Shown here one piece after another: positions 21,517-62,339 of a DNA stretch of 64,000 bases; the first letter of the stretch is position 1, and the number at the start of each line of letters is the position of its first letter. The stretch covers positions 20,111 to 84,110 of the IMG/VR virus record IMGVR_UViG_3300028844_006431. One strand, 5' to 3'. The notes beneath the pieces are model-generated. The model ran no database searches and was not told the origin of the DNA. It saw only the letters and a program-made list of their open reading frames with translations. The position numbers were made by a program, and so were the translations under genes. The DNA is from a virus.

Positions 21517-21776
21517 ATGAACACTTTGTTCAGAATGGAAACATTCGAACAATTGAAAATGATCCAAGCCATTTCATTTGGCATCAAGATGAATTTGACC
21601 GCATCATCTCTTTAATTTCAGGCGACAAATGGTTTCTACAAATGGAACATCAGTTGCCTGAAAAAATAGAGAAAAACAAAAACATGTATATACAAAAAGA
21701 AGTCTGGCATCGTGTGTTCTGTACAAATACGAATGCTGAGAATCATCTAATCATTTCAATACAAGACATTCAATGA
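21510..21776 (+). CDS. Small conserved protein, possibly cupin-like, 88 aa
   Basis: The frame after the previous gene reads VNEHFVQNGNIRTIENDPSH and then GDKWFLQMEHQLPEKIEKNK and EVWHRVFCTN. Short beta-strand spacing and the late histidine (VWHRVF) resemble a minimal cupin barrel, a weak inference. The start is uncertain: a TTG at 21510 follows AGGAGG (21501-21506) closely, while an upstream in-frame ATG at 21444 would overlap the previous gene by 73 bases. Its TGA overlaps the next ATG (ATGA at 21773). Confidence 0.55.
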   Translation: MVNEHFVQNGNIRTIENDPSHFIWHQDEFDRIISLISGDKWFLQMEHQLPEKIEKNKNMYIQKEVWHRVFCTNTNAENHLIISIQDIQ

Positions 21777-22852
21777 AATCTTTTAAAGAATTACACGAAG
21801 AATATCTCGAGGAAAAAAAATATCCTAAACTGAAACAACGCAAAGATGTTAGTTCAAAAACTAAAAGCGGTAAAGATAAGTCAACACCTGAAAAAAATTA
21901 TCATGGTTTGAGCAAAGGTACCGCACAGGAAAGAGAGGATCATTGGAAGAAGCAGAGAGAAAAACATCATAGTGACTCTTCAGCTTACACACCCGCACCT
22001 GGTGATAAAAACGCCAAGACAAAGCCTTCCAAATATACAAAGGCCTATCATAAAAAATATGGTGACCCTTCAAAGGAAAAGAAGAAGGTCAGCGAAGATG
22101 TTGAAGGAGTGAACATACCATCCGAAACTTCAAAAGAAATTGAAAGACTTTCTAAATCATATAATGTAGAAGTATCTGAAATTGTAAAGCTTTATCGTAA
22201 ACTTTACGAAAGATATCGAATTATGATGAGAACTGGTAACAACGCAAGTGTTCCGAATGAAAAAGAAGCAAAGATTCTACAGGGTTCAACAATGTCGGCT
22301 ATGAAGAAAGCTTTAGAGAAAAAAGATGATGATGTAAATTCTGAAATAAAAAGAAGAAGAATGGGTGGTCAAGAACGACCTGTTCGAGAACCTCAGGATG
22401 ACCGTTTCGCTGAAATGAAAAGACGTTCACAAATGGAGTCAACTGAAAGTTCAATTAAAGAACGTGTTTTAAATGAATATTATGAAACTGTTTTTGAGGT
22501 AAATCCTGTTGAATTATATGGTGAATATTTGGAAGAAGGAAAAGCCGATACAGGATTAGCCGCTAAAGCCAAAAAAAGTGGCATATCTTTAAGTACGTTA
22601 AGAACTGTATATAATCGAGGGATGGCAGCATGGCGTGGTTCACATCGACCTGGAACTACACCTCAACAATCGGCGAATGCTAGGGTAAATTCCTATATTG
22701 CAAAAGGTAAAACTTGGCACACTGCCGATGCAGACTTACATGGCGGAAAAAAGAAAGATAATAAAACCAAGAAAAAGGGATCATCCACAAAACAATCAAC
22801 TAAACCACGTACTAAAACCGGAAGAGGTGGAAGGACTAAATTACATCCATGA
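21773..22852 (+). CDS. Lysine-rich tagged protein with a phage DUF5824-like C-terminal domain, 359 aa
   Basis: The N terminus MKSFKELHEEYLEE matches a T4-type capsid-targeting peptide, with an LEE cleavage-like site at residues 12-14. The middle is highly charged and Lys-rich. Residues about 262-325 (ADTGLAAKAKKSGISLSTLR; YNRGMAAWRGSHRPGTTPQQ; ANARVNSYIAKGKTWHTADA) match a domain common in phage proteins (I believe DUF5824), of unknown function. The C terminus is a basic tail. Coupled by ATGA overlaps on both sides. A DNA-condensing internal head protein is a reasonable inference. Confidence 0.75.
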   Translation: MKSFKELHEEYLEEKKYPKLKQRKDVSSKTKSGKDKSTPEKNYHGLSKGTAQEREDHWKKQREKHHSDSSAYTPAPGDKNAKTKPSKYTKAYHKKYGDPSKEKKKVSEDVEGVNIPSETSKEIERLSKSYNVEVSEIVKLYRKLYERYRIMMRTGNNASVPNEKEAKILQGSTMSAMKKALEKKDDDVNSEIKRRRMGGQERPVREPQDDRFAEMKRRSQMESTESSIKERVLNEYYETVFEVNPVELYGEYLEEGKADTGLAAKAKKSGISLSTLRTVYNRGMAAWRGSHRPGTTPQQSANARVNSYIAKGKTWHTADADLHGGKKKDNKTKKKGSSTKQSTKPRTKTGRGGRTKLHP

Positions 22853-23355
22853 AAACAAAATGTTGTGTGCCAACTGTAATACACCATATAAAACCACGTT
22901 ATATTGGTGGTACAGATGAGCCTGAAAATTTGATAGAACTAACATACAAAGAACATGCCACAGCACATTTTTTATTGTGGCTACAATACCATGATGAAAG
23001 AGATTGGTTAGCATGGCGAGGCTGCGAAGGACTTATCGGTAAAGAACAAATACATAAAGAGATATGTTCAATCGCTGGTAAGAAAAGTTACGCTGAAGGA
23101 AAAGGAATACACGATAAGACAAAAAAATCTGAATGGGCTAGAATGGGCGCAGCCGCAGCATATGCAAAACACAAAGAAAAGATAGATGCCCAGCTGAGAG
23201 AGAATGCCCGTAGAGGAGCAGAACTTGGACTTGGTGGGCATGAAGCAGGTAAATGGATTTGGATAACTAACGGACAAGAGAGTAAGAAAGTTTTGAAAGC
23301 AGAACAACTACCAGACGGATGGCGCAGAGGTCGTCATAGTCGAAAGGCAGCATGA
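22849..23355 (+). CDS. HNH-family endonuclease, probable homing type, 168 aa
   Basis: Residues 10-45 read VIHHIKPRYIGGTDEPENLI-ELTYKEHATAHFLLW. This is an HNH core with paired His (HHIKP), GG, Asn and downstream His residues (EHATAHF). The C-terminal GKWIWITNGQESKKVLKAEQ-LPDGWRRGR is the short DNA-binding tail often seen on phage HNH homing endonucleases. Its middle is helical and basic. ATGA overlaps join it to both neighbours (22849-22852 and 23352-23355), unusually tight for a mobile gene. Confidence 0.85.
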   Translation: MKTKCCVPTVIHHIKPRYIGGTDEPENLIELTYKEHATAHFLLWLQYHDERDWLAWRGCEGLIGKEQIHKEICSIAGKKSYAEGKGIHDKTKKSEWARMGAAAAYAKHKEKIDAQLRENARRGAELGLGGHEAGKWIWITNGQESKKVLKAEQLPDGWRRGRHSRKAA

Positions 23356-24563
23356 AAGCATTTAAACAATTCGTTATTGAAGAACAACTTTTAACTGAAG
23401 GTGGTAATTCACCTTTTATTAATCGTGAAACAGGACAAGTTCTAGGTCGTGCTGAACGTATGAACATGGCATCTGTAAATCGTAAACAGATTCAGGAGAA
23501 GTTGCTGACCATGCTTCAGGAACTTAACGTTAAATTCGGTAAAATGTTTGGCAAACCCTTATGGCCGTCTTGGTCAATTGTTGCGTCTGGTGAAGCTTTT
23601 AACGGTTCCAGTGAGCAATTTTTTGACAGCTCGATCTCTGATGCGGACTTCAAGAAATATAAGAAAACTGTTGGTGATATGGACCTGACAATCCCTCATG
23701 GTAATCTTGGACCTTTGTTTGACTTACTTGCTACTCTCGAAAATAAAAAGCTTGCTGGAGGAACTTTTATCTACAAGGGACAGAATAAAAAGAAACAGCA
23801 GGGACATCAAATCAATTCAATCTTTCAATTACAAAATCCAAAACTCAATCTTCAAATTGATTTTGAAGGTGTGAACTACGAGAAAGATAAACCAGACGCC
23901 TTTGGTAAGTTTTCACATAGTTCAAACTGGGAAGATATGAAAGCAGGTCTGAAAGGTCTGGGTCATAAACTTTTACTGATGAACATGGCAAGAGCCTTAT
24001 CCGCAATGCATAATGTAGTTGTGCTGACACCTTCCTCAACTGCTGAAAACCCTAAAGTTTCGGAAGCAGAAACAGAAAAGTTTCCCACGAACTTAGCATT
24101 CTCTGTTGATAGTGGCGCTCGTTTTAAATACGAGCCAGTGATGAAAGGTGAAACGCAATTAGAGATCAATGGTAAAAAGGCTTACAAGAAACTTCCGACA
24201 AAGAATAGTAAATACACAACAAATCTAAAAGAAATTTTTTATATGATGTTTTCAAAGAAACCATCAGAAACGGATCTGATTAAGTTTCGAAGTTTTGTAG
24301 GTATTCTTTCATTGCTCAAAGAAAAGAAAATAAAAAAACAAGTAATTATAGACATCTTTGAAAACCTTCTTACAAAAAGTATGTTCTGTAAACATTGTCA
24401 GGGAACAGAAGTAAATAATCCAGATGGTGATCGAAATACAAAAATGATCATTGTCAATAAAATGGTATCAGAATTTTCGTATCTCAAGCCGATTCTGGAC
24501 AAAGCTCAACCGATGATTGAAAAGTATTATCAAAACTATAAAGAAGTAAAGGTAGATTCATGA
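23352..24563 (+). CDS. Pol-beta-type nucleotidyltransferase-like protein with capsid-targeting-like N terminus, 403 aa
   Basis: The N terminus MKAFKQFVIEEQLLTEGG has the targeting motif and IEE/LTE sites (residues 9-16). A nucleotidyltransferase pattern follows: FNGSSEQF (83-90) as the G-S loop, GDMDLTI with D109 and D111 as metal ligands, and LQIDFEG (168-173) as the third acidic strand. C-terminal CKHC is a possible metal site. The family transfers nucleotides to nucleic acids, proteins or small molecules; the substrate is unknown. It lies directly before an RNA ligase fusion, suggesting shared RNA or nucleotide chemistry. The motif-based call is moderate. Confidence 0.6.
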   Translation: MKAFKQFVIEEQLLTEGGNSPFINRETGQVLGRAERMNMASVNRKQIQEKLLTMLQELNVKFGKMFGKPLWPSWSIVASGEAFNGSSEQFFDSSISDADFKKYKKTVGDMDLTIPHGNLGPLFDLLATLENKKLAGGTFIYKGQNKKKQQGHQINSIFQLQNPKLNLQIDFEGVNYEKDKPDAFGKFSHSSNWEDMKAGLKGLGHKLLLMNMARALSAMHNVVVLTPSSTAENPKVSEAETEKFPTNLAFSVDSGARFKYEPVMKGETQLEINGKKAYKKLPTKNSKYTTNLKEIFYMMFSKKPSETDLIKFRSFVGILSLLKEKKIKKQVIIDIFENLLTKSMFCKHCQGTEVNNPDGDRNTKMIIVNKMVSEFSYLKPILDKAQPMIEKYYQNYKEVKVDS

Positions 24564-26173
24564 TGACTTTTCGCACTTTCGTAGTCAGAAAAAATTACAT
24601 AACAGAAGCCGCCTCAGGTAGACTTGATACAAGTATTGTAAATGCGGACAAAGCTTTCAAGAAGAAAGTTGAGTTCTTCTTTGTCTTAGATAAAACAGGT
24701 AATACACTCAATCCTAGAGAATATACGATTGAAGAAAAGTTTGATGGTGTCAAGTTGAATCTTTTTCGCAATAATCAAGATTTTGATCCAAAAGATTTTT
24801 CAAAGAATTGGATTGTTTCTTATAAGAACAATATTATGCATCCTGATGAATTCAAATCAGTTTCTGCTAAAAAATCAAAAGAGCAGGGAATTGGTATCAC
24901 TCAGTATCGTTTAGTGTTTGATCACTTAAGAAAGCATCATCGTCACACAAAAAGTATACCAAAGAACACTGAATTCTTTATTGAATACATGATGAAGAAA
25001 CCGACTCTCACTCGAGAGTATGAAACAAATCATTCGATGGTTCTGATTGGTTATGCTCATAATATGAAAATTGATAAGCAATCTGATTTTCGTATCTACA
25101 CTAAAGAAACTACTTTAGAGAATAAAGAAAATGCTCACTATGCGGAGATGCTTGGAATTGAAAGCGGTGCGGTAGTTTTCGAAGGATCAATTGATTCTTA
25201 TAATGACCTACATTCAGGTGCTAAGAATAAATCTTTGAAATCAGCTATTTCAAAGAATAAAAAGTTTCTACAGAAATTATATAAGGACCGTAATTGGGAT
25301 GAACTTTATACTCTGGTCAAAGAAATATTTCTTGAAGTGAAAAGTGTCTATGGTGGTAGTAAGACAGAAGGTGTTGTAATCAAAGATCATTTGACAAAAA
25401 AGACATTCAAATTCTTACAAGATGACCAACATGATAAAGATGTTCGAGCAAATGTCAAATCAAATTATAAAATGAACGATGAAGAAGAAAATAATTATTA
25501 TACAAAACTTCGTGAAATTGCTACTGAAATTTTGAATGACCTTGACCTTTCACAATCTTTCAGTGAAGTGATGAAAGAAATTTCAGCTAAAGTACATCGA
25601 TATAAACTACCTACCAAAATTCACACAAAGAAAAATATACATCAAGTTCGTGAAGACTTACATTTGACTACGAAGATGAAGTTTGAAAAACTGAAAGAAG
25701 GTTGGGCTGGTGTTGTAGGCAAGTTCCGAATTGTTACAAATGAACATGTCAAGATGATTGAATCCGCTTTTGACAAAGGTTATAAAGGTGTGACTGTAAT
25801 GATCGTTGCGGGTTCAAGAGATCCTGGATTAGCAAATGCGAGTAAAGAAATTCTTCAAGAAATCTTCAAAGGAAAGCCAATTGAATTTGTGATCGCAAAA
25901 ACAGGTAACATTGTTTCTCTTGAAAGAAAAACTCGTAATCCAATTGTAGCCTATATATGTGGACCAGATCGTGAATTAGATTATGAAAATCAACTCAAGT
26001 CAGCAAACAGTGATGCGATTGTTGATACTTACGATGGTGGTAAACGAGGAGAAGTTTCTGCGACTCAAGCAGAAGAAGCATTGAACAGTAATAACTATGG
26101 CAAGTTAGCCAAAATTGTACACGAAATTGCACTTAAACAAATTGATAAATGGTCTAAGTTTATAAAGAAATAG
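24560..26173 (+). CDS. RNA ligase fused to NMNAT-like nucleotidylyltransferase domain, 537 aa
   Basis: Covalent nucleotidyltransferase motifs are I, EEKFDGVKLNL with nucleophile K60; III/IIIa, FFIEYM (139-144); IV, TEGVVIK (269-275); and V, KTFKF (281-285). They define a DNA/RNA ligase core, closest in layout to T4 Rnl2-type RNA ligases. Residues about 385-515 look like a HIGH-type nucleotidylyltransferase: GKFRIVTNEHVKMIESAF (variant T-x-E-H for HxGH), GPDRE (468-472) and EVSATQAEEAL (the ISxTxxR-type motif, without the Arg). The N terminus MMTFRTFVVRKNYITEA has a targeting-like motif with an ITE site. ATGATGA couples it to the previous gene. Confidence 0.75.
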   Translation: MMTFRTFVVRKNYITEAASGRLDTSIVNADKAFKKKVEFFFVLDKTGNTLNPREYTIEEKFDGVKLNLFRNNQDFDPKDFSKNWIVSYKNNIMHPDEFKSVSAKKSKEQGIGITQYRLVFDHLRKHHRHTKSIPKNTEFFIEYMMKKPTLTREYETNHSMVLIGYAHNMKIDKQSDFRIYTKETTLENKENAHYAEMLGIESGAVVFEGSIDSYNDLHSGAKNKSLKSAISKNKKFLQKLYKDRNWDELYTLVKEIFLEVKSVYGGSKTEGVVIKDHLTKKTFKFLQDDQHDKDVRANVKSNYKMNDEEENNYYTKLREIATEILNDLDLSQSFSEVMKEISAKVHRYKLPTKIHTKKNIHQVREDLHLTTKMKFEKLKEGWAGVVGKFRIVTNEHVKMIESAFDKGYKGVTVMIVAGSRDPGLANASKEILQEIFKGKPIEFVIAKTGNIVSLERKTRNPIVAYICGPDRELDYENQLKSANSDAIVDTYDGGKRGEVSATQAEEALNSNNYGKLAKIVHEIALKQIDKWSKFIKK

Positions 26174-27158: not shown

Positions 27159-28439
27159 ATGGCTAGAGTAGATTCAATTCAAAAACCTACAACTCTTTTG
27201 ACTTTGAAAAAATCAAAGTCAGTAGCAAACGAAACTGCTGGAACATTAGCCGGTGAAATCATGCTGATTACAGATGATTTAGGTACTGTTCAGGGTGACA
27301 TTCGCATTTCTTCAGGTAGATACTATCATACTCTTCCTTTTGTTCAAGTAGGCTCAATTATTTATTACGCAGGAGAACACGTTCCTGATGGTTATCTTAT
27401 TTGCGATGGTTCACTTGTTTCACAAAGATTATATCCAGAACTATTTGATAAAATACAAAATTTTTGGTGGAAACGACCATTCAAACATGATAATCAACAA
27501 GATGCTACAGAAGTTTATTATGTAGGTTCAGGTGGAACTCGTCCAACGGGATCGTTAGAAACTTGGTTTTGGAGCAATTGGAAGATTAAATTTCTTCAAG
27601 AAGACCATCCTTCAGGTCCTCAATTTAATACATATGGCAAAATCTTTCAAGAAAGAGATGACCAATTTGAACCTTATTATCAAAAAATTCAGTATCCTTC
27701 ATGGACTAGATCTTGGATTTCCAGTGAAATATCATCTCAGGGTAATTTTTTATTTAATGGCGGTACAAATTTTAACGCAGAATTTAATGCTGCGTACGGT
27801 CGTCTTCCTGATCCAGCAATAGATATAGTTCGTGATCCTGTTTTTGCTTTACCCAACTTTACAAGTTTATATACGGCTGAAGCAACAGAAAGAGAAAAAT
27901 TACAAGGTTACTTTGTTCGTAATTTGAATGAAAATTATACAGAGTCGCATCCAGATTATTATAAAACTGAATATGATGAAAGAGGATTGTGGAATTGGTC
28001 TTATCATGATGGTTCAAATTATAGAAGTTCTGGACCAGTTGAATTTCATAAAATTATGAGAAGTTATAGTTCTCTTCAAGAAAATGAAGTTCGACGACAT
28101 CGACATCGACTTGAAGATGTTGGTGAAGGCCCGGGAAGGTCAGGTAAATCAGGCGCTCATGCTCATGATTATCATGGTTCTGTGAATTCTACCAATGGAG
28201 ATCCTTTAGGTAGAGCGGTTGCCGGAGTCGCCGGTAGAGAAGACCAATTCGGTAGAAGGGCAACAACAGTTGAAACTTTTGATTCTGGATGGCATAACCA
28301 TTTTGGTTATGTAGGGTTTGGACATTCTGTAGACCATGAGGAGCATGAAACTTATGTTGTCAATAAAAAAGATGAAACTCTGAATTCTATTGAAACAAGA
28401 CCATGGTCTTATTCAGTACAATTTTGTATAAAATACTAA
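27159..28439 (+). CDS. Tail-collar-domain fibre protein 1, 426 aa
   Basis: Residues about 65-100 (VGSIIYYAGEHVPDGYLICD-GSLVSQRLYPELFDKI) are a phage tail collar domain, as in T4 gp12 and related adhesins. An upstream GDIRISSGRYYHTLP section is shared with the next two genes. The C-terminal part is His-rich (RRHRHRL, AHAHDYHG, HNHFG), like the HxH metal-binding tips of T4 short and long fibres. It ends SVQFCIKY, parallel to its paralogues. It is the first gene after the late promoter. A receptor-binding or collar role in the virion is likely. Confidence 0.85.
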   Translation: MARVDSIQKPTTLLTLKKSKSVANETAGTLAGEIMLITDDLGTVQGDIRISSGRYYHTLPFVQVGSIIYYAGEHVPDGYLICDGSLVSQRLYPELFDKIQNFWWKRPFKHDNQQDATEVYYVGSGGTRPTGSLETWFWSNWKIKFLQEDHPSGPQFNTYGKIFQERDDQFEPYYQKIQYPSWTRSWISSEISSQGNFLFNGGTNFNAEFNAAYGRLPDPAIDIVRDPVFALPNFTSLYTAEATEREKLQGYFVRNLNENYTESHPDYYKTEYDERGLWNWSYHDGSNYRSSGPVEFHKIMRSYSSLQENEVRRHRHRLEDVGEGPGRSGKSGAHAHDYHGSVNSTNGDPLGRAVAGVAGREDQFGRRATTVETFDSGWHNHFGYVGFGHSVDHEEHETYVVNKKDETLNSIETRPWSYSVQFCIKY

Positions 28440-28453
28440 AGGTATAATTAACA

Positions 28454-30496
28454 ATGGCGTTACAATCAATTAAATCAGGAGCCTTCAAATTTTCAAAAAC
28501 AATTGAAAATCTTGATAAAGTTTCAACAGCAGGTTCAATTATTATTTCTGTAGATGATGATACAAATTTGACAGGTGATATTCGTGTTCATGATGGTGTA
28601 ACACCAGGAGGAATTTCTGCTCCTCCACCAGGAACAGTTTCTTATATTATTACTGAAAGAAAATTAATTGAAGAAGTATTTATAGCAAATGTTCATTCTG
28701 ATTTTATAACAACAGCGCCTGGAGGAATTGGCAACGCTATTTCATTTTCAGCAAATTATCCAGCTTCTGGTAATTTAGATACTGGTCCTTATCGTTTTTT
28801 TGGTATTCAAATAGAAACAGAACGTAAAGACATACCTTTGGATGCTATTGATGCTTTGAGTGATAAATTCTTTTTATTCCCAACACTAAGAGGAACGGGT
28901 GAGACAAAATTTGATATTACACATTTATTAAGAGATTCATCTACGGGATTTCAGTATCCTTATACAAGTGAATTAATGTCATCAAGTGCTAGTAATCCTA
29001 ATCGTAAAATCGAAAGAACTGGTTTAGTGATTCCCGATGATACTGAATTAAGCCGTTTTATGTATTCATTTGATGCTGATGCAAATACAATCACAATTTC
29101 TGCAGATGATTTTATTTTTCCTTTAAAGACAGGGGATAAAATAAAATTACAATATGTAGATGGTGATACAGGATTTCAAGATCCTGATGGTTGGTTTTAT
29201 TGTGATGGTAGAAGAGTGAAAAAAGAATTTTATTCTGCTTTGTTTCGTGAGATTGGTGATATATGGAATATATCACCAAGTGATAGAGATATCTTTGATC
29301 CAGGTTTTTATATAAATCGTGCTACTTTTCCATTTCAAGATATTCGTGAATATTTTTCACAAGGATTTGAAAAAAGATTTGATGTAAATTATTCAAACGG
29401 AAGAGTTCGTGTATTTAAAGCACCTTCGGGATTACCAAATGATATAGTTGAAGTTCCAACATCAGATTATACATTAGGGACAGCCGGAGATGGTCAGACT
29501 TATATTCGTTTTCCTGATGATAAAATACCGCAATCTGGAGAAAGAATTTTAGTTGTTGGAACTCCAGATAGTGATGAATTTCAAATACCAGATTTTCGTG
29601 GGTTTTATTTGCGGGCTTGGAATTCAAAAAGATTCATTGATACAAAAGGTGTAACTCATTACACGCCTCCTGGAATTCTATCAAAAAAACATTATGCTGT
29701 TCAAAAACACTCCCACTTTATAGGACTTGCCACTGGTGGTAAACACAAACATAAATATATACCTTGGGAATTTGGTGGAAATTCACCATTTGCAAAAGCA
29801 GTTTGGGGTGATTGGCCAACAAATATGCCAACTGGTGAAAACTCATGGCTGAGTTCGTATACTCATCACAGCCCAAGTTTAATTGGAACAGGGGAAGATT
29901 TTTATGGAAAATGGCAACATGATGCAACTGAAGCTGAAGTAGGAAGTAATATTGATATAAAACGAAGAACTAAGTTATGGCAAGTTGGAGTAGGAAATTA
30001 TTCAAAAGTAGAACCTGATAAAGCGCATAGAGGTTATAGTAATGCATCAGGATATCAAGATTGGTCTCTAGATGGTTCTTGGAATTATTCAAAAGATCAT
30101 GTTTCGTACGTTCTTGGTTCAGGGCCTTGTAATATGGTTGATTTTGGTCCTTCAAGAATTGAAAACACGACTTTTAATTATCGTCATAAACATTTTATAA
30201 AATTTTCAAAAACAATTATTGACCCAGGTGATATTCGTGGAAGAAGTTCAGCCGCTCTTGGATATGAAGGTCCAGGTTCAGGCATTTTCACTAATGGGCA
30301 TACATACCTAGGAACATCTCGAACTGGATGGCAAACTGAACATAACAATCAACCGGTATATGGTTACGAAAGCTATAACAGTGGTACTGGTGTATCAAAA
30401 GCTCAAGGTGGATATCGAGTTGAAGGTAGAGATACTACAAGTTTACATGAAGTTGATATCACAAATATAAAATTACCAACTTTTATAAAGTACTAA
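28454..30496 (+). CDS. Tail-collar-domain fibre protein 2, 680 aa
   Basis: MALQSIKSGAFKFSKTIENL leads into a TGDIRVHDGVTPGG motif and a long insert, then a tail collar element (DPDGWFYCDGRRVKKEFYSA-LFREIGDIW) near residues 240-275. FQIPDFRGFYLRAWN near 375-390 is the usual second collar signature. His-rich sections (KHSHF, KHKHKYI, YRHKHFIKF) suit metal-stabilised fibre tips. It ends TFIKY. Paralogue of the adjacent genes and one base from the third. Likely an alternative or complementary adhesin. Confidence 0.85.
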   Translation: MALQSIKSGAFKFSKTIENLDKVSTAGSIIISVDDDTNLTGDIRVHDGVTPGGISAPPPGTVSYIITERKLIEEVFIANVHSDFITTAPGGIGNAISFSANYPASGNLDTGPYRFFGIQIETERKDIPLDAIDALSDKFFLFPTLRGTGETKFDITHLLRDSSTGFQYPYTSELMSSSASNPNRKIERTGLVIPDDTELSRFMYSFDADANTITISADDFIFPLKTGDKIKLQYVDGDTGFQDPDGWFYCDGRRVKKEFYSALFREIGDIWNISPSDRDIFDPGFYINRATFPFQDIREYFSQGFEKRFDVNYSNGRVRVFKAPSGLPNDIVEVPTSDYTLGTAGDGQTYIRFPDDKIPQSGERILVVGTPDSDEFQIPDFRGFYLRAWNSKRFIDTKGVTHYTPPGILSKKHYAVQKHSHFIGLATGGKHKHKYIPWEFGGNSPFAKAVWGDWPTNMPTGENSWLSSYTHHSPSLIGTGEDFYGKWQHDATEAEVGSNIDIKRRTKLWQVGVGNYSKVEPDKAHRGYSNASGYQDWSLDGSWNYSKDHVSYVLGSGPCNMVDFGPSRIENTTFNYRHKHFIKFSKTIIDPGDIRGRSSAALGYEGPGSGIFTNGHTYLGTSRTGWQTEHNNQPVYGYESYNSGTGVSKAQGGYRVEGRDTTSLHEVDITNIKLPTFIKY

Positions 30497-30497
30497 A

Positions 30498-32975
30498 ATG
30501 TCTAGAAAAAATTATTTTTCAAATCGCATATCAATCAATCAAATTAAAGATGATTTAGGTATTATAGGTGATCCAAGCAGGGCTGCTTTAGAAAAACCTG
30601 GTATTCAAAGACTGAATAATTCAGCGATTCGTATAGTAAACAAGAGAGAATTTTCAGCATTTCGAGATTCTTTTATAACAACTGAAACTGCTTTTGATAC
30701 TTTCAACCAAAAAAAGACAACATCTTCAACTAAAACTTTGCACTATCGTGATCCAGTTTCAAACGCTCACGCACCAGAACCTTATAGTTGTTTTGATGGT
30801 CCTGACAAACCAACAAAAGGGCAAATTGTAGTTATTGAAAATCCTTATTATAAAGGTCAACTTGATGGTGATATACGAATTACAGATGGAGGTAAAAGTT
30901 TTTCCGGTGTAACATTCCCACCAACTGGAACTTTGGGATATTTTGCTTATGATGATAAAACACCAGACGGTTGGCTTGAATGTAATGGACAACCTGTTTT
31001 GTATCGTAAGAGATTAGGTCAAGGATATGTTGATACTGAATATACAAGATTATATGAAATTTTATATTCTTGGGGAATATTCACTGATTATACAGATATT
31101 ACACCAGATGCTACCTACGGTAAAGTTTTTCGAGCACCAAACTTAACAGGTTTCTTTGTTCGTGGTCTCAATGTAACAAGCACAGGCCTTGAAGATAATA
31201 GCAGTCTTCAAAGAAAACCTTTTGACCGAACAATCAACATTGATGTAGTTGATCATGAGCATACTGGATACAATCCTTATAATCGTCCTGAAAAAATTAC
31301 AAAAGTTTGGTTTCGAAGACCAAATTATACTCCACATCGTTCAGGTGAGTTGGGTCAGTGGGAAGATACATCAAGCCCGCCTCCAGATCCGGGTAGAGGT
31401 TACAGAAATCAAAATGGTTACAGACATCATAGGCGAGATGTTCATACCGCAAGATATGACAGTAATTCAGGTAATAAAATAGCTTATCAAGGTGATGGCG
31501 CTCAAGGAAGATACTGGTATCCAACACCTTCAACAGGATATGAAGTTTATTTCTTTGGCCGAGGTGGTGGAAAATTTTCTCTTTATGGAGAAACAAATCC
31601 ATATAGTTATGGTTGGGGCTATGATAAGTTATATTGGGATGATTATATGCTTGTTAATTATAAGTACTATAGAGGCGCTCCTAAAGGTTTGTGGATGTGG
31701 CATCACGATATTTGGCATCGCCATTCTAACTCAAATAGTCCATGGACTCATGGCTACATGAAAGTTTTTTATGCCAATGAAAAAAGCGCACATCCTTACG
31801 AAGGCGAAGGGGACGCAACTAAGGGACGCATCGATTACCAAACTTATGTTGAAGATTGGTCTCATGGAAATGATAATGGTACTTATCATCATGGAAATGC
31901 TGAAATGATGTGGGATGATTTATATGATTATAGTAACTTTGTTATAAATCTTGAGGTGGATAATCAAAACGCTGCTCAAACCACTGGCTGGTATAAAAAA
32001 TCATTTTCAAATGTTGGCCAATATTGTGACCATGCGCCTGATTATTTAATAGAAAACAAGCAAACGGTGTATCAACAAAATGTAGTTCTTCGTCAAAATA
32101 CTGGAAGACGATATGGAATATGGTGTGGTAAATATGCTAATCAATCATATTATTATAATTGGCAACGAGGTAGCGATTGGCACGATGAAGGTGTGACAGT
32201 TGGTGATGGTGCTGATAGTACTGGTAGATCGAATAGTCATATTTATTATCCAAATGCAAGTGTAGTTCGTAGAAAACATGAAAATGAACCCCCAACTGGG
32301 CCATATGGTACAGCTACAAGTTATAATGATAGCCAAGATGAATCAAAAAATAATTTTCGAAGAAATCCATGGATTTGGGGTTTTGACCGCCATTATCATA
32401 ATAATATTATGACATATTATCGTAGTACTTGGTTTCCAGATCCTGATCCAGCCTTAGGGTATTCTGGTTGGCAGTTTCCACAACATTCTGACCATACACG
32501 ATGTAATATTGATAAATTGACTTTAAGAAATGAGATTGGATGGAGGGCACTGAACAAAGATCGTTATGTTTATGATTCAAGCCGAGATGAAATTGATTAT
32601 TTTTATTGGTCAAATGAAGGTGGTGTTGTTTGGAAAGAAAGAGGTAGTAACAGTAGAAATGATGATTTAAAATCGATATATATGCAGGCTGGTCATAGTG
32701 GTATTACACGTCGAAGGTATATGGCAAAAAATGATACATACACTCCGCATAACGATCACTGGTGGGTATCTTTTTGTTACATAACAAAACCTTCTGTTGA
32801 TAGTTCTGGTAATGTTGAGGAGGCTCTACTAAATACAGGTGATAATGGAGCAAAAACTTCTTTAGCCGGAGATCACAATCATCTTGCTTTTGGTCATGAA
32901 GATAGTGTATTTTACCAAGGTCAAGAAGAAACAAGACCGCATAATGTGGCATTGAGAATGTTTATTAAGTATTGA
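30498..32975 (+). CDS. Tail-collar-domain fibre protein 3, 825 aa
   Basis: A GDIRITDGGKSFSG motif (residues about 118-131) and collar element (PTGTLGYFAYDDKTPDGWLE-CNGQPVLYRKRLG) near 137-170 are followed by VFRAPNLTGFFVRGLN. The long distal part is extremely rich in Tyr, Trp, His, Asn and Gly, as in receptor-binding tips. It ends DHNHLAFGHED and ALRMFIKY, the C-terminal pattern shared with the two upstream paralogues. Tail-adhesin role inferred. Confidence 0.85.
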   Translation: MSRKNYFSNRISINQIKDDLGIIGDPSRAALEKPGIQRLNNSAIRIVNKREFSAFRDSFITTETAFDTFNQKKTTSSTKTLHYRDPVSNAHAPEPYSCFDGPDKPTKGQIVVIENPYYKGQLDGDIRITDGGKSFSGVTFPPTGTLGYFAYDDKTPDGWLECNGQPVLYRKRLGQGYVDTEYTRLYEILYSWGIFTDYTDITPDATYGKVFRAPNLTGFFVRGLNVTSTGLEDNSSLQRKPFDRTINIDVVDHEHTGYNPYNRPEKITKVWFRRPNYTPHRSGELGQWEDTSSPPPDPGRGYRNQNGYRHHRRDVHTARYDSNSGNKIAYQGDGAQGRYWYPTPSTGYEVYFFGRGGGKFSLYGETNPYSYGWGYDKLYWDDYMLVNYKYYRGAPKGLWMWHHDIWHRHSNSNSPWTHGYMKVFYANEKSAHPYEGEGDATKGRIDYQTYVEDWSHGNDNGTYHHGNAEMMWDDLYDYSNFVINLEVDNQNAAQTTGWYKKSFSNVGQYCDHAPDYLIENKQTVYQQNVVLRQNTGRRYGIWCGKYANQSYYYNWQRGSDWHDEGVTVGDGADSTGRSNSHIYYPNASVVRRKHENEPPTGPYGTATSYNDSQDESKNNFRRNPWIWGFDRHYHNNIMTYYRSTWFPDPDPALGYSGWQFPQHSDHTRCNIDKLTLRNEIGWRALNKDRYVYDSSRDEIDYFYWSNEGGVVWKERGSNSRNDDLKSIYMQAGHSGITRRRYMAKNDTYTPHNDHWWVSFCYITKPSVDSSGNVEEALLNTGDNGAKTSLAGDHNHLAFGHEDSVFYQGQEETRPHNVALRMFIKY

Positions 32976-38960: not shown

Positions 38961-40415
38961 ATGAGAGAAGTAGACGTAGTAATCTTTGGCGCAGGTTCTG
39001 CTGGTATGTCAGTATATCGTGCCGTCAAGAAAGCAAACAAATCATGTATTCTAATTGAAAATCATCTTTACGGAACTACATGTGCGAGGGTGGGTTGTAT
39101 GCCTTCGAAATTGCTGATTGCTGCCGCTCATGCTGCTCATGAAGTAAAGAAAGCTCATCAGTTTGGAATTCATACAGACTTAAACTCTCTTGAAATAAAT
39201 CGTTCTCAAGTGATGAGAAGAATACGACAAGAAAGAGATCGTTTTGTTGGCTTTGTTCTTGAAGATATTCATGATTTTCCTAAAGAAGATATGGTGCTAG
39301 GTGATTATCATTTCATCAATGAAAACACAATTGAAAGTGAGATAGGTAGACAAATTCAAGCAAAAAGATTTGTCATTGCTACTGGTCAAAAACCATTTAT
39401 TCTACCTGTTTTCTCAAATATACCTGATCGAATTCTTGATACAGAAGATTTCTTTAACTTTAAAATTCTACCCAAGAGTGTTGCTGTAATTGGAACAGGA
39501 GCGATTGGTCTTGAAATCGGACAATCACTGACAAGATTGGGTGTAAAAACAACAATCTTGGGAATTGACCGTTTAATTGGTACACTTACAGATCCTGAGC
39601 TACTCAATATTGCGAATGATATATTCAAAGGTGAATGTCGAATCTTTAACGAAGCGAACATTCTTTCAGCAAATCTTGTAAATAAGCCCGATGATGAATA
39701 CGAAAAAGTTGTTGAACTTCATTGGGAAGAAAATGATATTCTACATACAGAACATTTTGAATATATTCTCTCAGCAACTGGTACAGTACCAAATCTCGCA
39801 TCACTCAATTTAGAAGCTACACCTTTAAAGTTTGAGAAGAAAAGACCAGTCTACAATCGTCAAACATTGCAATGCGAGAATCTAGATGGTTCTTCTTCAA
39901 ATTTCTTTATTGCTGGAGACATTACGGGTGAAAGAATGATTCTACATGAGGCAATCTGGGAAGGACAGTTTGTTGGTAAAAATGTAGTGGAATCAATGAG
40001 GGATGGTTATATTGATTCTGCTCCGAATCTAGTGATGTCAAGAGAAATTAAAACAGCATTGGGTGTAATCTTCACTGATCCTCAAATATGTATGGTAGGC
40101 AAAACCTATTCAGAACTTACTGATGAACATGCAATTGGTAGAGTTGATTATACAAGACAAGGTCGTTCAAGAATTGAACTGAAGAATTATGGCGCACTTC
40201 ACATCTATGGGAATCAAGAAACTCGCCAGATTGTTGGTTGTGAAATGTGTGGTCCTGCTGCTGAACATATTGGGCATCTGATTGCCTGGGCGATTGAAAT
40301 GGGCTTGACAGTTGAGCAAGCCTTAGAAATGCCTTTTTATCATCCTGTGAAAGAAGAAGGTGTTCGTACTGCTTTACGTGATTTACAAAAAGAATTCAAT
40401 GAACGACAAATCTGA
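38961..40415 (+). CDS. Class I flavoprotein disulfide reductase (dihydrolipoamide dehydrogenase/glutathione reductase family), 484 aa
   Basis: Complete: FAD-binding GAGSAG (10-15), redox disulfide TTCARVGCMPSK with C41 and C46, NAD(P)-binding GTGAIGLEIG (about 178-187), FIAGD (about 316-320), and a C-terminal HPVKEEG catalytic His-Glu (near 460-465) from the dimer partner. All key residues are present, so it should be active. The family reduces dihydrolipoyl groups, glutathione, trypanothione or Hg(II); the substrate is not readable. A C-x4-C spacing fits the family. In a phage this is unusual; it could keep glutaredoxin reduced for the Grx-NrdB enzyme encoded downstream, which is inference. 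Confidence 0.88.
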   Translation: MREVDVVIFGAGSAGMSVYRAVKKANKSCILIENHLYGTTCARVGCMPSKLLIAAAHAAHEVKKAHQFGIHTDLNSLEINRSQVMRRIRQERDRFVGFVLEDIHDFPKEDMVLGDYHFINENTIESEIGRQIQAKRFVIATGQKPFILPVFSNIPDRILDTEDFFNFKILPKSVAVIGTGAIGLEIGQSLTRLGVKTTILGIDRLIGTLTDPELLNIANDIFKGECRIFNEANILSANLVNKPDDEYEKVVELHWEENDILHTEHFEYILSATGTVPNLASLNLEATPLKFEKKRPVYNRQTLQCENLDGSSSNFFIAGDITGERMILHEAIWEGQFVGKNVVESMRDGYIDSAPNLVMSREIKTALGVIFTDPQICMVGKTYSELTDEHAIGRVDYTRQGRSRIELKNYGALHIYGNQETRQIVGCEMCGPAAEHIGHLIAWAIEMGLTVEQALEMPFYHPVKEEGVRTALRDLQKEFNERQI

Positions 40416-60452: not shown

Positions 60453-62339
60453 TTATCCTTCTTTGAGTGTTTTTTTCCAGCTATTTGTGTGATTCTGTCC
60501 CTCCCAATCAAGACCTCCAATGTACTTCAATAAAATCTTCTTGATCTTATCTCGACTTGGTCCCTCTTCAATAGCATTATCTTTTTGTAAAACCTTCACT
60601 ACTTTTTCACCAATCTCAAACTGAATTCTTTCATAAGATGCTTTGATTGGATAAGCTTGAGAATAGGGTGAGGGATTACCCACATCAGGTGTTGCTTCTC
60701 CGTACAGCCTTTCAAGACAATAAGCCAAATTCTTTTCGTCATTTTCTTGACTCAAATTTCTCTTGAGCATCCTGAGTACATGGGCATAAGGATGCCACTC
60801 CATGATCACCTTTTCGATTAGACCGTGATATTTTTTATCAAGCCGTTCATCCTCAATATAAACATATGTGGCGTCTGCGATTTTTGTTTTGATTGAAATC
60901 AAGACTTCTTTGTCTTGAAAACTTCTCTTAATAATATCTGCCCAAGACTGTTGAAGTTCTTTCGGTATGTCATGGTCAAATGATTCAAAGAAAGGATTGT
61001 TTTCAGCTTTGTCATCGAAGACATCCATATGACGAGCATCTTTTGTAAAAGCTTTTATAAAAACTTTCGCATTTGGTTTGAAATCAATAAGTGCCTTAAT
61101 CAGATCAGGTTTCTTCGCAACAATCTCTACCATTGTTTCGTTTCCGATCTTCAATCCTGTCTTGTGTAATTCTTGACGAATAACTTTTGGTGGCTTACGA
61201 ACGGCATTTACCATTGCTGCGAGAATTTCTTTTTGACTTACATCCACAAGATACTTCGCATTCTTAAAGGTATCCATCAGAATATCTCGTTGTATAACCG
61301 GCGGTAACTTTACTTTCATAGGATGTTTGCTCAAAAGATTTCCTGAATCACCCTTATAATTTGTCAGTAATACATCTTTGACGGCATCTCCTTTTACGCC
61401 AAGCTCTGCAAGCATGTGTTCAGTTACCTTGTCGCCACCAAGTTTGTTGATTTTACCTGTTGTGATTAACTTCTTTGCTTTACCTGACTCTGCCATTTCT
61501 TGTTTCAGCGGTCCGAAATTATAGTCTTTGTTCGGTATGGCATCAAGTGTTTTCCATCCGTAACGTGATTTACCCGTGAAGAACACACACTGAGTTCTTT
61601 CCGCAGGATGAATGATACCTTTGTTATCTGGATCACAAACTGAATCATAGAAGAATTTCTTACCAGCACCTCTTGTCCAAAGTAATGCCCAGAGAGTAGC
61701 CTTTGGTTCATATTTCTTGAATGTTTCATAAGATGCATTTCGTCCAGCAAGTGCTTCAACATTATTCCAATTCGATTCAGCATAAACAAATGAAATTACT
61801 CTTGTAATATTCCATAACATGCCCGCATAAGATTTCTCTCGAGCACCCTTTTGTGCTTGAGCAATTGCTGAAGAAATGATTCTTGGAAAGATTTTAGCAT
61901 CTTTGTTTGACCATTTCTTTTTCATCTGAATCAACACATCATGTGTCAAATCTTTGATATCTCGTTGATACTTAGCACCATCATAATCATCAGTCAAATT
62001 GAGATGTTTGCCTTTAGGCAATCGTTGAATGAGTCCAATCCAAGGCATGTCACCCGCAAAAGGCACATCAAATTCTTTTGCATCATCATCTGTTTCTTCA
62101 TAAGCATAAACAATCGGATAAGTATAAATGCCGTTTGGTGTGTTATATTTTGATTTCGTATTCAAACCAATCTGAACAGTTTCATCTGCTGTATCTGTAA
62201 AAGCATTTGCATTCTTGACAAAAGAAATGAACATGTCTCCTCGCTTACGATAAGGAGATAACTTCTTGACTGGATTCTCTTTTGGATTTTTCTCTGGATT
62301 TCTTCTTGCTTCAACAAGAAATTGATTGAATGATTTCAT
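60453..62339 (-). CDS. Large protein with capsid-targeting-like N terminus, 628 aa
   Basis: The N terminus MKSFNQFLVEARRNPEKN is close to T4 internal-protein targeting peptides (MKTYQEFI-A-E), with an LVE site (8-10). Residues 30-115 (SPYRKRGDMFISFVKNANAF; GLNTKSKYNTPNGIYTYPIV; PWIGLIQRL) form a conserved-looking section that I have seen in other phage proteins of unknown role. The rest is helical and Lys-rich. ATGA overlap with the upstream gene. Packaging into the head is inferred. Confidence 0.75.
   Translation of the reverse strand: MKSFNQFLVEARRNPEKNPKENPVKKLSPYRKRGDMFISFVKNANAFTDTADETVQIGLNTKSKYNTPNGIYTYPIVYAYEETDDDAKEFDVPFAGDMPWIGLIQRLPKGKHLNLTDDYDGAKYQRDIKDLTHDVLIQMKKKWSNKDAKIFPRIISSAIAQAQKGAREKSYAGMLWNITRVISFVYAESNWNNVEALAGRNASYETFKKYEPKATLWALLWTRGAGKKFFYDSVCDPDNKGIIHPAERTQCVFFTGKSRYGWKTLDAIPNKDYNFGPLKQEMAESGKAKKLITTGKINKLGGDKVTEHMLAELGVKGDAVKDVLLTNYKGDSGNLLSKHPMKVKLPPVIQRDILMDTFKNAKYLVDVSQKEILAAMVNAVRKPPKVIRQELHKTGLKIGNETMVEIVAKKPDLIKALIDFKPNAKVFIKAFTKDARHMDVFDDKAENNPFFESFDHDIPKELQQSWADIIKRSFQDKEVLISIKTKIADATYVYIEDERLDKKYHGLIEKVIMEWHPYAHVLRMLKRNLSQENDEKNLAYCLERLYGEATPDVGNPSPYSQAYPIKASYERIQFEIGEKVVKVLQKDNAIEEGPSRDKIKKILLKYIGGLDWEGQNHTNSWKKTLKEG

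What the first reader, a model, noticed from the sequence alone, without database searches (positions are those of the whole stretch)
24560..26173. RNA ligase fused to an NMNAT-like nucleotidylyltransferase domain, with a packaging-type tag
K60-F-D-G, FFIEYM, TEGVVIK and KTFKF make a ligase core; the C-terminal GKFRIVTNEH, GPDRE and EVSATQ order matches HxGH-type adenylyl/cytidylyltransferases, though the HxGH is a T-x-E-H variant. The combination could join RNA repair to NAD or nucleotide chemistry, for example tRNA repair plus NAD restoration against host defences that cut tRNA or consume NAD. The packaging tag would place it in the cell at the moment of infection.
Basis: partly seen in the sequence, partly recalled or inferred. 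Interest (0 to 1): 0.8.

Follow-up and report, generated by a model that had tools for sequence, protein, structure and literature searches.

The report
Capsid-tagged phage RNA-repair enzyme pair
A T4-like virus of bacteria carries a gene that fuses an RNA-ligase-type enzyme to a nucleotide-transferring domain; it travels with a second nucleotide-adding enzyme, and both carry the short N-terminal label that T4-like phages use to load proteins into the virus head, so the phage may inject ready-made RNA-repair enzymes at the moment of infection.

Summary

The overlapping upstream gene (23352-24563) is a polymerase-beta-type nucleotidyltransferase. Cultured phages that have one have the other (Campylobacter CP220 group, Vibrio phages; split form in Xanthomonas phage X1), and some phages fuse all three activities.

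The packaging tag is real as sequence. Both proteins begin with 16 residues ending at a T4 prohead-protease site (L/I-x-E), where untagged relatives begin. In the partner, 26 of 26 tagged relatives read x-x-E|GGN and 23 untagged ones start M-GGN.

NAD restoration is not supported: NadV is absent from most carriers, and this clade's HxGH motifs lost Pro, Gly and the ISTxxR arginine. Most likely: a virion-delivered RNA end-repair module. Activity, RNA substrate and packaging are untested.

The parts
24560..26173 (+). Ligase-HxGH fusion gene, 537 aa (phrog_27149)
24560..24607 (+). N-terminal tag, residues 1-16, ending at predicted prohead-protease site ITE|A
   Evidence: Absent in CP220 and Vibrio relatives, which begin right after it; [LIV]xE|[AGS] in most tagged relatives; disordered in model
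24623..25459 (+). Ligase (covalent nucleotidyltransferase) domain, residues 22-300; adenylation lysine K60
   Evidence: Motifs I, III, IV, V invariant; PF09414 in 8 of 44 members; Foldseek to viral RNA ligases
25460..25699 (+). All-helical region, residues 301-380, in the place where DNA ligases have an OB fold
   Evidence: Secondary structure of the model
25700..26170 (+). HxGH nucleotidylyltransferase domain, residues 381-537 (TNEH, GPDRE, VSAT)
   Evidence: occurs as a separate gene in L025 and Xanthomonas phage X1
23352..24563 (+). Partner gene, polymerase-beta-type nucleotidyltransferase, 403 aa (phrog_19290), overlapping the ligase gene by ATGA
23352..23399 (+). N-terminal tag of the partner, residues 1-16, ending at LTE|GGN
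   Evidence: 26 of 26 tagged relatives have a hydrophobic-x-E before GGN, 23 untagged start M-GGN; residues 1-17 disordered
23400..23408 (+). Invariant Gly-Gly-Asn (17-19), predicted mature N-terminus of the partner
   Evidence: Invariant in the 42-row alignment
21773..22852 (+). Possibly linked gene: DUF5824 domain with an MKSFKELHEEYLEE start; in pelagiphage HTVC008M DUF5824 is fused to an HxGH cytidyltransferase
   Evidence: PF19141 E 5.3e-22
22849..23355 (+). HNH homing-endonuclease-like gene lying between the DUF5824 gene and the pair; probably an insertion, not part of the system
   Evidence: phrog_655 homing endonuclease E 6e-14

Best explanation
A two-gene nucleic-acid end-repair module, most likely for RNA such as host tRNA cut by defence nucleases, that this phage carries inside its capsid. 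Proposed steps: (1) both proteins are drawn into the prohead by their N-terminal tags and the prohead protease cuts after E16, leaving mature proteins that begin GGN and AASG (sequence evidence strong, packaging inferred). (2) They enter the host with the DNA (inferred). (3) The polymerase-beta-type enzyme adds back nucleotides lost at a break (inferred from fold class and pairing). (4) The ligase self-adenylates on K60, activates a 5'-phosphate and seals it to a 3'-OH (family chemistry, inferred). (5) The fused HxGH domain moves AMP between ATP and a 5'-phosphate; ATP + R-5'P <-> App-R + PPi is the same chemistry as the App-RNA step of ligation, so it may load or clear adenylylated ends rather than make NAD (hypothesis).
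For: Ligase motifs invariant, PF09414 matches, viral RNA ligases as structural matches, helical region instead of OB fold. HxGH fold. Same cultured phages carry both genes, order NTase-ligase recurs in IMG/VR, 15 of 20 carrier records match both profiles, single-ORF fusion in L061 and split genes in X1. Tags with L/I-x-E sites, matching the T4 rule; prohead protease family in 17 of 20 carrier records. A P-loop kinase is fused in L043. Precedent: RlaP NTases beside phage RNA ligases.
Against: No activity, RNA substrate or virion presence has been shown. PF09414 matches stay below the curated cut-off where scores were printed. The ligase-only profile finds no ligase in PDB. Some lineages lack both tags (L032, L037, L041, L044, Va1, pv27, X1), so packaging is not universal. 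No prohead protease on this 84-kb fragment. The genes lie 66 kb apart in CP220.
Confidence: 0.5

Rival explanations
1. Packaged or intracellular DNA gap repair: the polymerase-beta-type enzyme fills gaps and the ligase seals nicks in phage DNA.
For: Foldseek's best matches for the partner are DNA polymerases beta, mu and PolX.
Against: Those matches are weak (E 6.5e-3). Pfam matches are to RNA_ligase, not DNA ligase; the region after motif V is helical, no OB fold; CP220 has a separate gp30-type DNA ligase.
Confidence: 0.15
2. Injected modifier: one or both enzymes attach nucleotides to a host protein or RNA to take over the host, like T4 Alt, and the ligase fold serves as a nucleotidyl carrier.
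For: T4 Alt and internal proteins are delivered in the same way; polymerase-beta NTases occur among protein-modifying effectors.
Against: All ligase motifs IV and V are kept, which a mere AMP carrier need not keep; kinase fusion in L043 suits end repair.
Confidence: 0.15
3. One reading: tRNA repair plus NAD restoration by an NMN adenylyltransferase domain.
For: Family profile matches NMNAT 9x6f at 8.9e-8, NCBIfam NMNAT models up to 1.3e-13 in members.
Against: NadV missing in 16 of 20 carrier records; PPAT matches nearly as strong; Pro, Gly and Arg signature positions lost in this clade.
Confidence: 0.12
4. The HxGH domain of this clade is catalytically dead and only binds a nucleotide or RNA end.
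For: I391, E395 and E505 replace the usual Pro, Gly and Arg.
Against: Final His 43/43 and Ser500 43/43 invariant; omega 0.15 to 0.23. Compatible with end repair by the rest.
Confidence: 0.25

Closest known systems
phrog_27149: Campylobacter phage CP220 gp026, Vibrio phage Va1_166
   Same: Same family and architecture; gp026 already carries a note of a nucleotidylyl transferase domain
   Different: Those ligases lack the N-terminal tag; no ligase domain or function had been assigned in the records seen
RlaP NTases with phage RNA ligases (PMC7824862)
   Same: A polymerase-beta-superfamily NTase working beside an RNA ligase
   Different: This NTase is not RlaP (PF10127 absent, profile comparison negative); RlaP has a GSxLYGT...SDxD pattern and no GGN start
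T4 internal proteins and Alt (capsid-targeting sequence)
   Same: 10-20-residue N-terminal propeptide ending in L/I-x-E (PMC9026906, PMC5694885)
   Different: Those block restriction or ADP-ribosylate host proteins; no packaged ligase/NTase pair was found in the papers searched
NMNAT (NadM, NadR) and phosphopantetheine adenylyltransferase
   Same: Rossmann HxGH fold, GxF, TxxH, ISAT-type motif
   Different: Fused to a ligase; Pro, Gly and Arg signature positions lost in this clade; substrate unknown
T4 Rnl2-type RNA ligases
   Same: Motifs I-V, no OB fold; structural matches among viral Rnl2 proteins
   Different: Sequence similarity is very low; HxGH domain and NTase partner are extra

Membership tests
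Covalent nucleotidyltransferase (ligase) superfamily | KxDG lysine and motifs III, IV, V | tested here: met
   K60, D62, G63 41/41; E142 42/42; E270-G271 43/43; K284 43/43
RNA ligase, Rnl2-like (PF09414) | Match to the family model above its cut-off | tested here: inconclusive
   8 of 44 members match, best 2.2e-5; scores printed (22.8 bits) are below the cut-off of 27; the window protein does not match
RNA ligase versus DNA ligase | No OB fold after motif V (DNA ligases have one) | tested here: met
   Residues 293-380 are helical in the model
RNA ligase | Joins RNA ends with ATP | not testable with these tools
   Needs purified protein
HxGH nucleotidylyltransferase superfamily | Rossmann fold of the superfamily | tested here: met
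   Foldseek PPAT/NMNAT, target TM up to 0.78; profile E 8.9e-8
HxGH nucleotidylyltransferase superfamily | [HT]xGH motif | tested here: inconclusive
   TNEH: final His invariant 43/43, Gly replaced by Glu in 3 members of this clade
HxGH nucleotidylyltransferase superfamily | ISTxxR motif arginine | tested here: not met
   Glu505 in the window clade; Arg in 23 of 43 members
NMN adenylyltransferase | Makes NAD+ from NMN | not testable with these tools
   Members match NMNAT models, window protein does not
Phage NAD salvage pathway | NadV supplying NMN in the same phage | tested here: not met
   Absent in 16 of 20 carrier records, five of them complete genomes of the closest named groups; window record is a fragment
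RlaP (PF10127) | Match to the RlaP model or profile | tested here: not met
   No Pfam hit, hhalign prob 0.1 against three RlaP proteins; RlaP found as a separate gene in 4 of 20 records
Polymerase-beta nucleotidyltransferase superfamily (partner) | GS, DxD and third acidic residue, and the fold | tested here: met
   G85-S86, D109-D111, D170 invariant; Foldseek polymerase beta E 6.5e-3, prob 0.98, so fold support is moderate
T4-type packaged internal proteins | 10-20-residue N-terminal propeptide ending in L/I-x-E | tested here: met
   ITE|A and LTE|G at residue 16
T4-type packaged internal proteins | Prohead protease of the gp21 family in the same phage | tested here: inconclusive
   17 of 20 carrier records; not on this 84-kb fragment
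T4-type packaged internal proteins | Presence in purified virions | not testable with these tools
   Published virion list of IBB_35 is in a supplement that could not be opened

The most novel reading that the evidence does not exclude
A virion-borne nucleic-acid end-repair machine in which an HxGH domain shares the ligase's App-RNA chemistry (adenylylating 5'-phosphates or rescuing abortive App-RNA), and in which the partner NTase is matured, perhaps switched on, by prohead-protease exposure of an invariant N-terminal Gly-Gly-Asn.
Probability: 0.15. Interest if true: 0.88.

Novelty: new variant of a known kind. Interest (0 to 1): 0.64.

Why it matters
Phage RNA repair is usually thought of as made after infection begins, when tRNA cleavage may already have stopped translation. 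A repair pair loaded in the capsid would act before any phage protein is made, and could let a phage survive defences that cut tRNA at once. The analysis proposes functions for two unassigned phage families (phrog_27149, phrog_19290), including proteins of studied Campylobacter phages, and makes clean predictions: GGN-starting peptides in virions and joining of cut RNA. It also raises two questions of its own: why an adenylyltransferase domain is fused to a ligase, and why the mature N-terminus of the partner is invariant.

Tried and rejected
RlaP as the identity of the partner: no Pfam hit, hhalign prob 0.1. Cellular relatives: none found in genome contigs with either profile; each scan used a single peptide pattern, so absence is weakly supported. 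NTase and ligase profiles are unrelated to each other. DUF6267 of cyanophages and pelagiphages, which lies just upstream of an HxGH gene and shows KWDGAP, QGD, EGYV and VKLV, looked like a ligase by eye, but hhalign against this family gave prob 0.3 and PDB nothing: left as an unproven lead. A ligase-only profile against PDB gave chance matches only. NAD salvage through NadV rejected as the general role. Virion papers on CP220 and IBB_35: the passages read name neither protein; IBB_35 has 25 unassigned virion proteins listed only in a supplement.

Full report
WHAT IS THERE. The window is part of an 84-kb fragment of a T4-like myovirus (baseplate hub, tail-tube cap, UvsX-like recombinase, family B DNA polymerase, ribonucleotide reductase). 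The protein belongs to phrog_27149, unknown function (E 2.5e-58). Alone it hits nothing significant in Pfam or PDB, so the case rests on its relatives.

RELATIVES. tblastn finds it in 21 phage records, 15 of Campylobacter phages (CP220 group) and 6 of Vibrio phages, at about 30-32% identity over 80-88%. IMG/VR gives 26 loci in the alignment-based search and more next to the partner gene. None was found in the species-genome collection, though that scan rested on one peptide pattern.

DOMAINS. In 44 aligned members K60, D62 and G63 are 41/41, E142 42/42, E270-G271 43/43, K284 43/43. Eight members match PF09414 RNA_ligase (best 2.2e-5, below or near cut-off) and 21 match CTP_transf_like. The family profile hits NMNAT 9x6f (8.9e-8) and phosphopantetheine adenylyltransferases; NCBIfam NMNAT models reach 1.3e-13 in members. 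AlphaFold2 gave pLDDT 87.6 with residues 1-24 disordered. Foldseek places the C-terminal part on PPAT and NMNAT folds (target TM up to 0.78), and in the viral library also finds RNA ligases. Residues 293-380 are helical, so there is no OB fold as in DNA ligases. The domain border is seen in nature: contig L025 and Xanthomonas phage X1 have ligase and HxGH as two genes.

HOW INTACT IS THE HxGH DOMAIN. The final His and the Ser of the ISxT motif are invariant (43/43). In the window clade the usual Pro, the Gly of HxGH and the Arg of ISTxxR are replaced (I391, E395, E505); 23 of 43 members keep the Arg. Selection is purifying (omega 0.15 against L001; 0.23 against L012, where synonymous sites are near saturation). 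Activity is uncertain, but the domain is maintained.

THE PARTNER. The upstream gene 23352-24563 overlaps by ATGA and encodes 403 aa (phrog_19290) with FNGS, GDMD and QIDFE, the pattern of polymerase-beta nucleotidyltransferases. Its model is confident (pLDDT 90); Foldseek's best matches are polymerases beta and mu but weak (E 6.5e-3, prob 0.98). It is found in the same cultured phages as the ligase (15 Campylobacter and 6 Vibrio records). In IMG/VR loci the order NTase then ligase recurs. Of 20 carrier records searched with both profiles, 15 match both (one of these only by a 36-residue fragment at a contig end; X1 and L072 only by the HxGH part of the ligase profile). One 183-kb contig (G002) has the ligase without this NTase and instead has an RlaP NTase. 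In L061 and four sister loci one 1085-aa ORF holds the NTase, a ligase-like part (read by eye) and an HxGH part (FAD_syn model, 6e-4). L043 adds an N-terminal P-loop kinase.

THE TAG. T4 prohead protease gp21 cuts after L/I-x-E (PMC9026906), and T4 internal proteins carry 10-20-residue capsid-targeting propeptides (PMC5694885). The window ligase begins MMTFRTFVVRKNYITE|AASG and the NTase MKAFKQFVIEEQLLTE|GGN. CP220 and Vibrio ligases start where the tag ends. For the NTase, 49 members with a readable N-terminus divide into 26 with a tag and 23 that start M-GGN; in all 26 tagged ones GGN is preceded by a hydrophobic-x-E, and most untagged starts have a Shine-Dalgarno-like sequence upstream. GGN is invariant. 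Many members are closely related, so 26 is not 26 independent events. Tags are on the ligase alone (L030, L035, L024, L019, L026, L020), on the NTase alone (CP220, L052 group, L061) or on both (window, L001, L043, L027, L046, L025); some lineages have none (L032, L037, L041, L044, Va1, pv27, X1). Such alternation is what one would expect if the two enter the head as a complex; that is inference. The prohead protease family is found in 17 of 20 carrier records, not on this fragment.

FUNCTION. Pairing of a polymerase-beta NTase with an RNA ligase has a precedent in RlaP, thought to restore lost nucleotides before ligation (PMC7824862), but this NTase is not RlaP. The HxGH reaction, ATP + R-5'-phosphate to App-R + PPi, is chemically the same as making App-RNA; I propose it serves the ligase rather than NAD. 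NadV is missing in most carriers, which speaks against NAD salvage. Packaging would put repair in place before phage gene expression, as T4 internal proteins block restriction at once (PMC12373910). Shown here: domain identities, pairing, tag and site. Inferred: packaging, activity, RNA substrate, complex formation.

NOVELTY. Searches of the open-access library found no description of a ligase-HxGH fusion or of a capsid-packaged RNA-repair pair; subscription papers are not held, so this is weak evidence. The nucleotidylyl transferase domain of CP220 gp026 was already noted in its record. I rate it a new variant of phage nucleic-acid repair.

Noticed in passing
window 60453-62339 (-): A third protein with a clear capsid-targeting-type start, MKSFNQFLVE|ARRN (628 aa), and no Pfam match.
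   Followed up: partly
L088 2365-6558 (Pelagibacter phage HTVC008M) and L087, L169-L173: In Kyanoviridae, DUF6267 (present in 469 phage records) lies upstream of an HxGH cytidyltransferase gene, in HTVC008M with a P-loop kinase between and DUF5824 fused to the HxGH protein. DUF6267 shows ligase-like KWDGAP, QGD, EGYV, VKLV, but profile comparison did not confirm a ligase.
   Followed up: partly
window 21773-22852 (+): DUF5824 protein beside the pair, with a tag-like start MKSFKELHEEYLEE but no L/I-x-E|A/G/S site in the first 30 residues.
   Followed up: partly
window 22849-23355 (+): HNH homing-endonuclease-like gene that overlaps both neighbours by four bases; also at the same place in L001.
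   Followed up: no
window 38961-40415 (+): PHROG names it ribonucleotide reductase large subunit, but its start MREVDVVIFGAGSAGMSVYRAVKKA reads like an FAD/NAD(P)-dependent oxidoreductase; the family label looks doubtful.
   Followed up: no
window 27159-32975 (+): Three successive large proteins with CDG-type repeats that look like tail-collar or fibre proteins; the corresponding proteins in the 91%-identical relative L001 are strongly diverged.
   Followed up: no
L043 7652-9619: P-loop kinase fused in front of the ligase-HxGH protein, giving a kinase-ligase-HxGH polypeptide.
   Followed up: partly
L076 1483-2917 (Campylobacter phage IBB_35): The ligase-HxGH gene is annotated as two ORFs here while sister phages have one; sequencing error or real split is open.
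   Followed up: no
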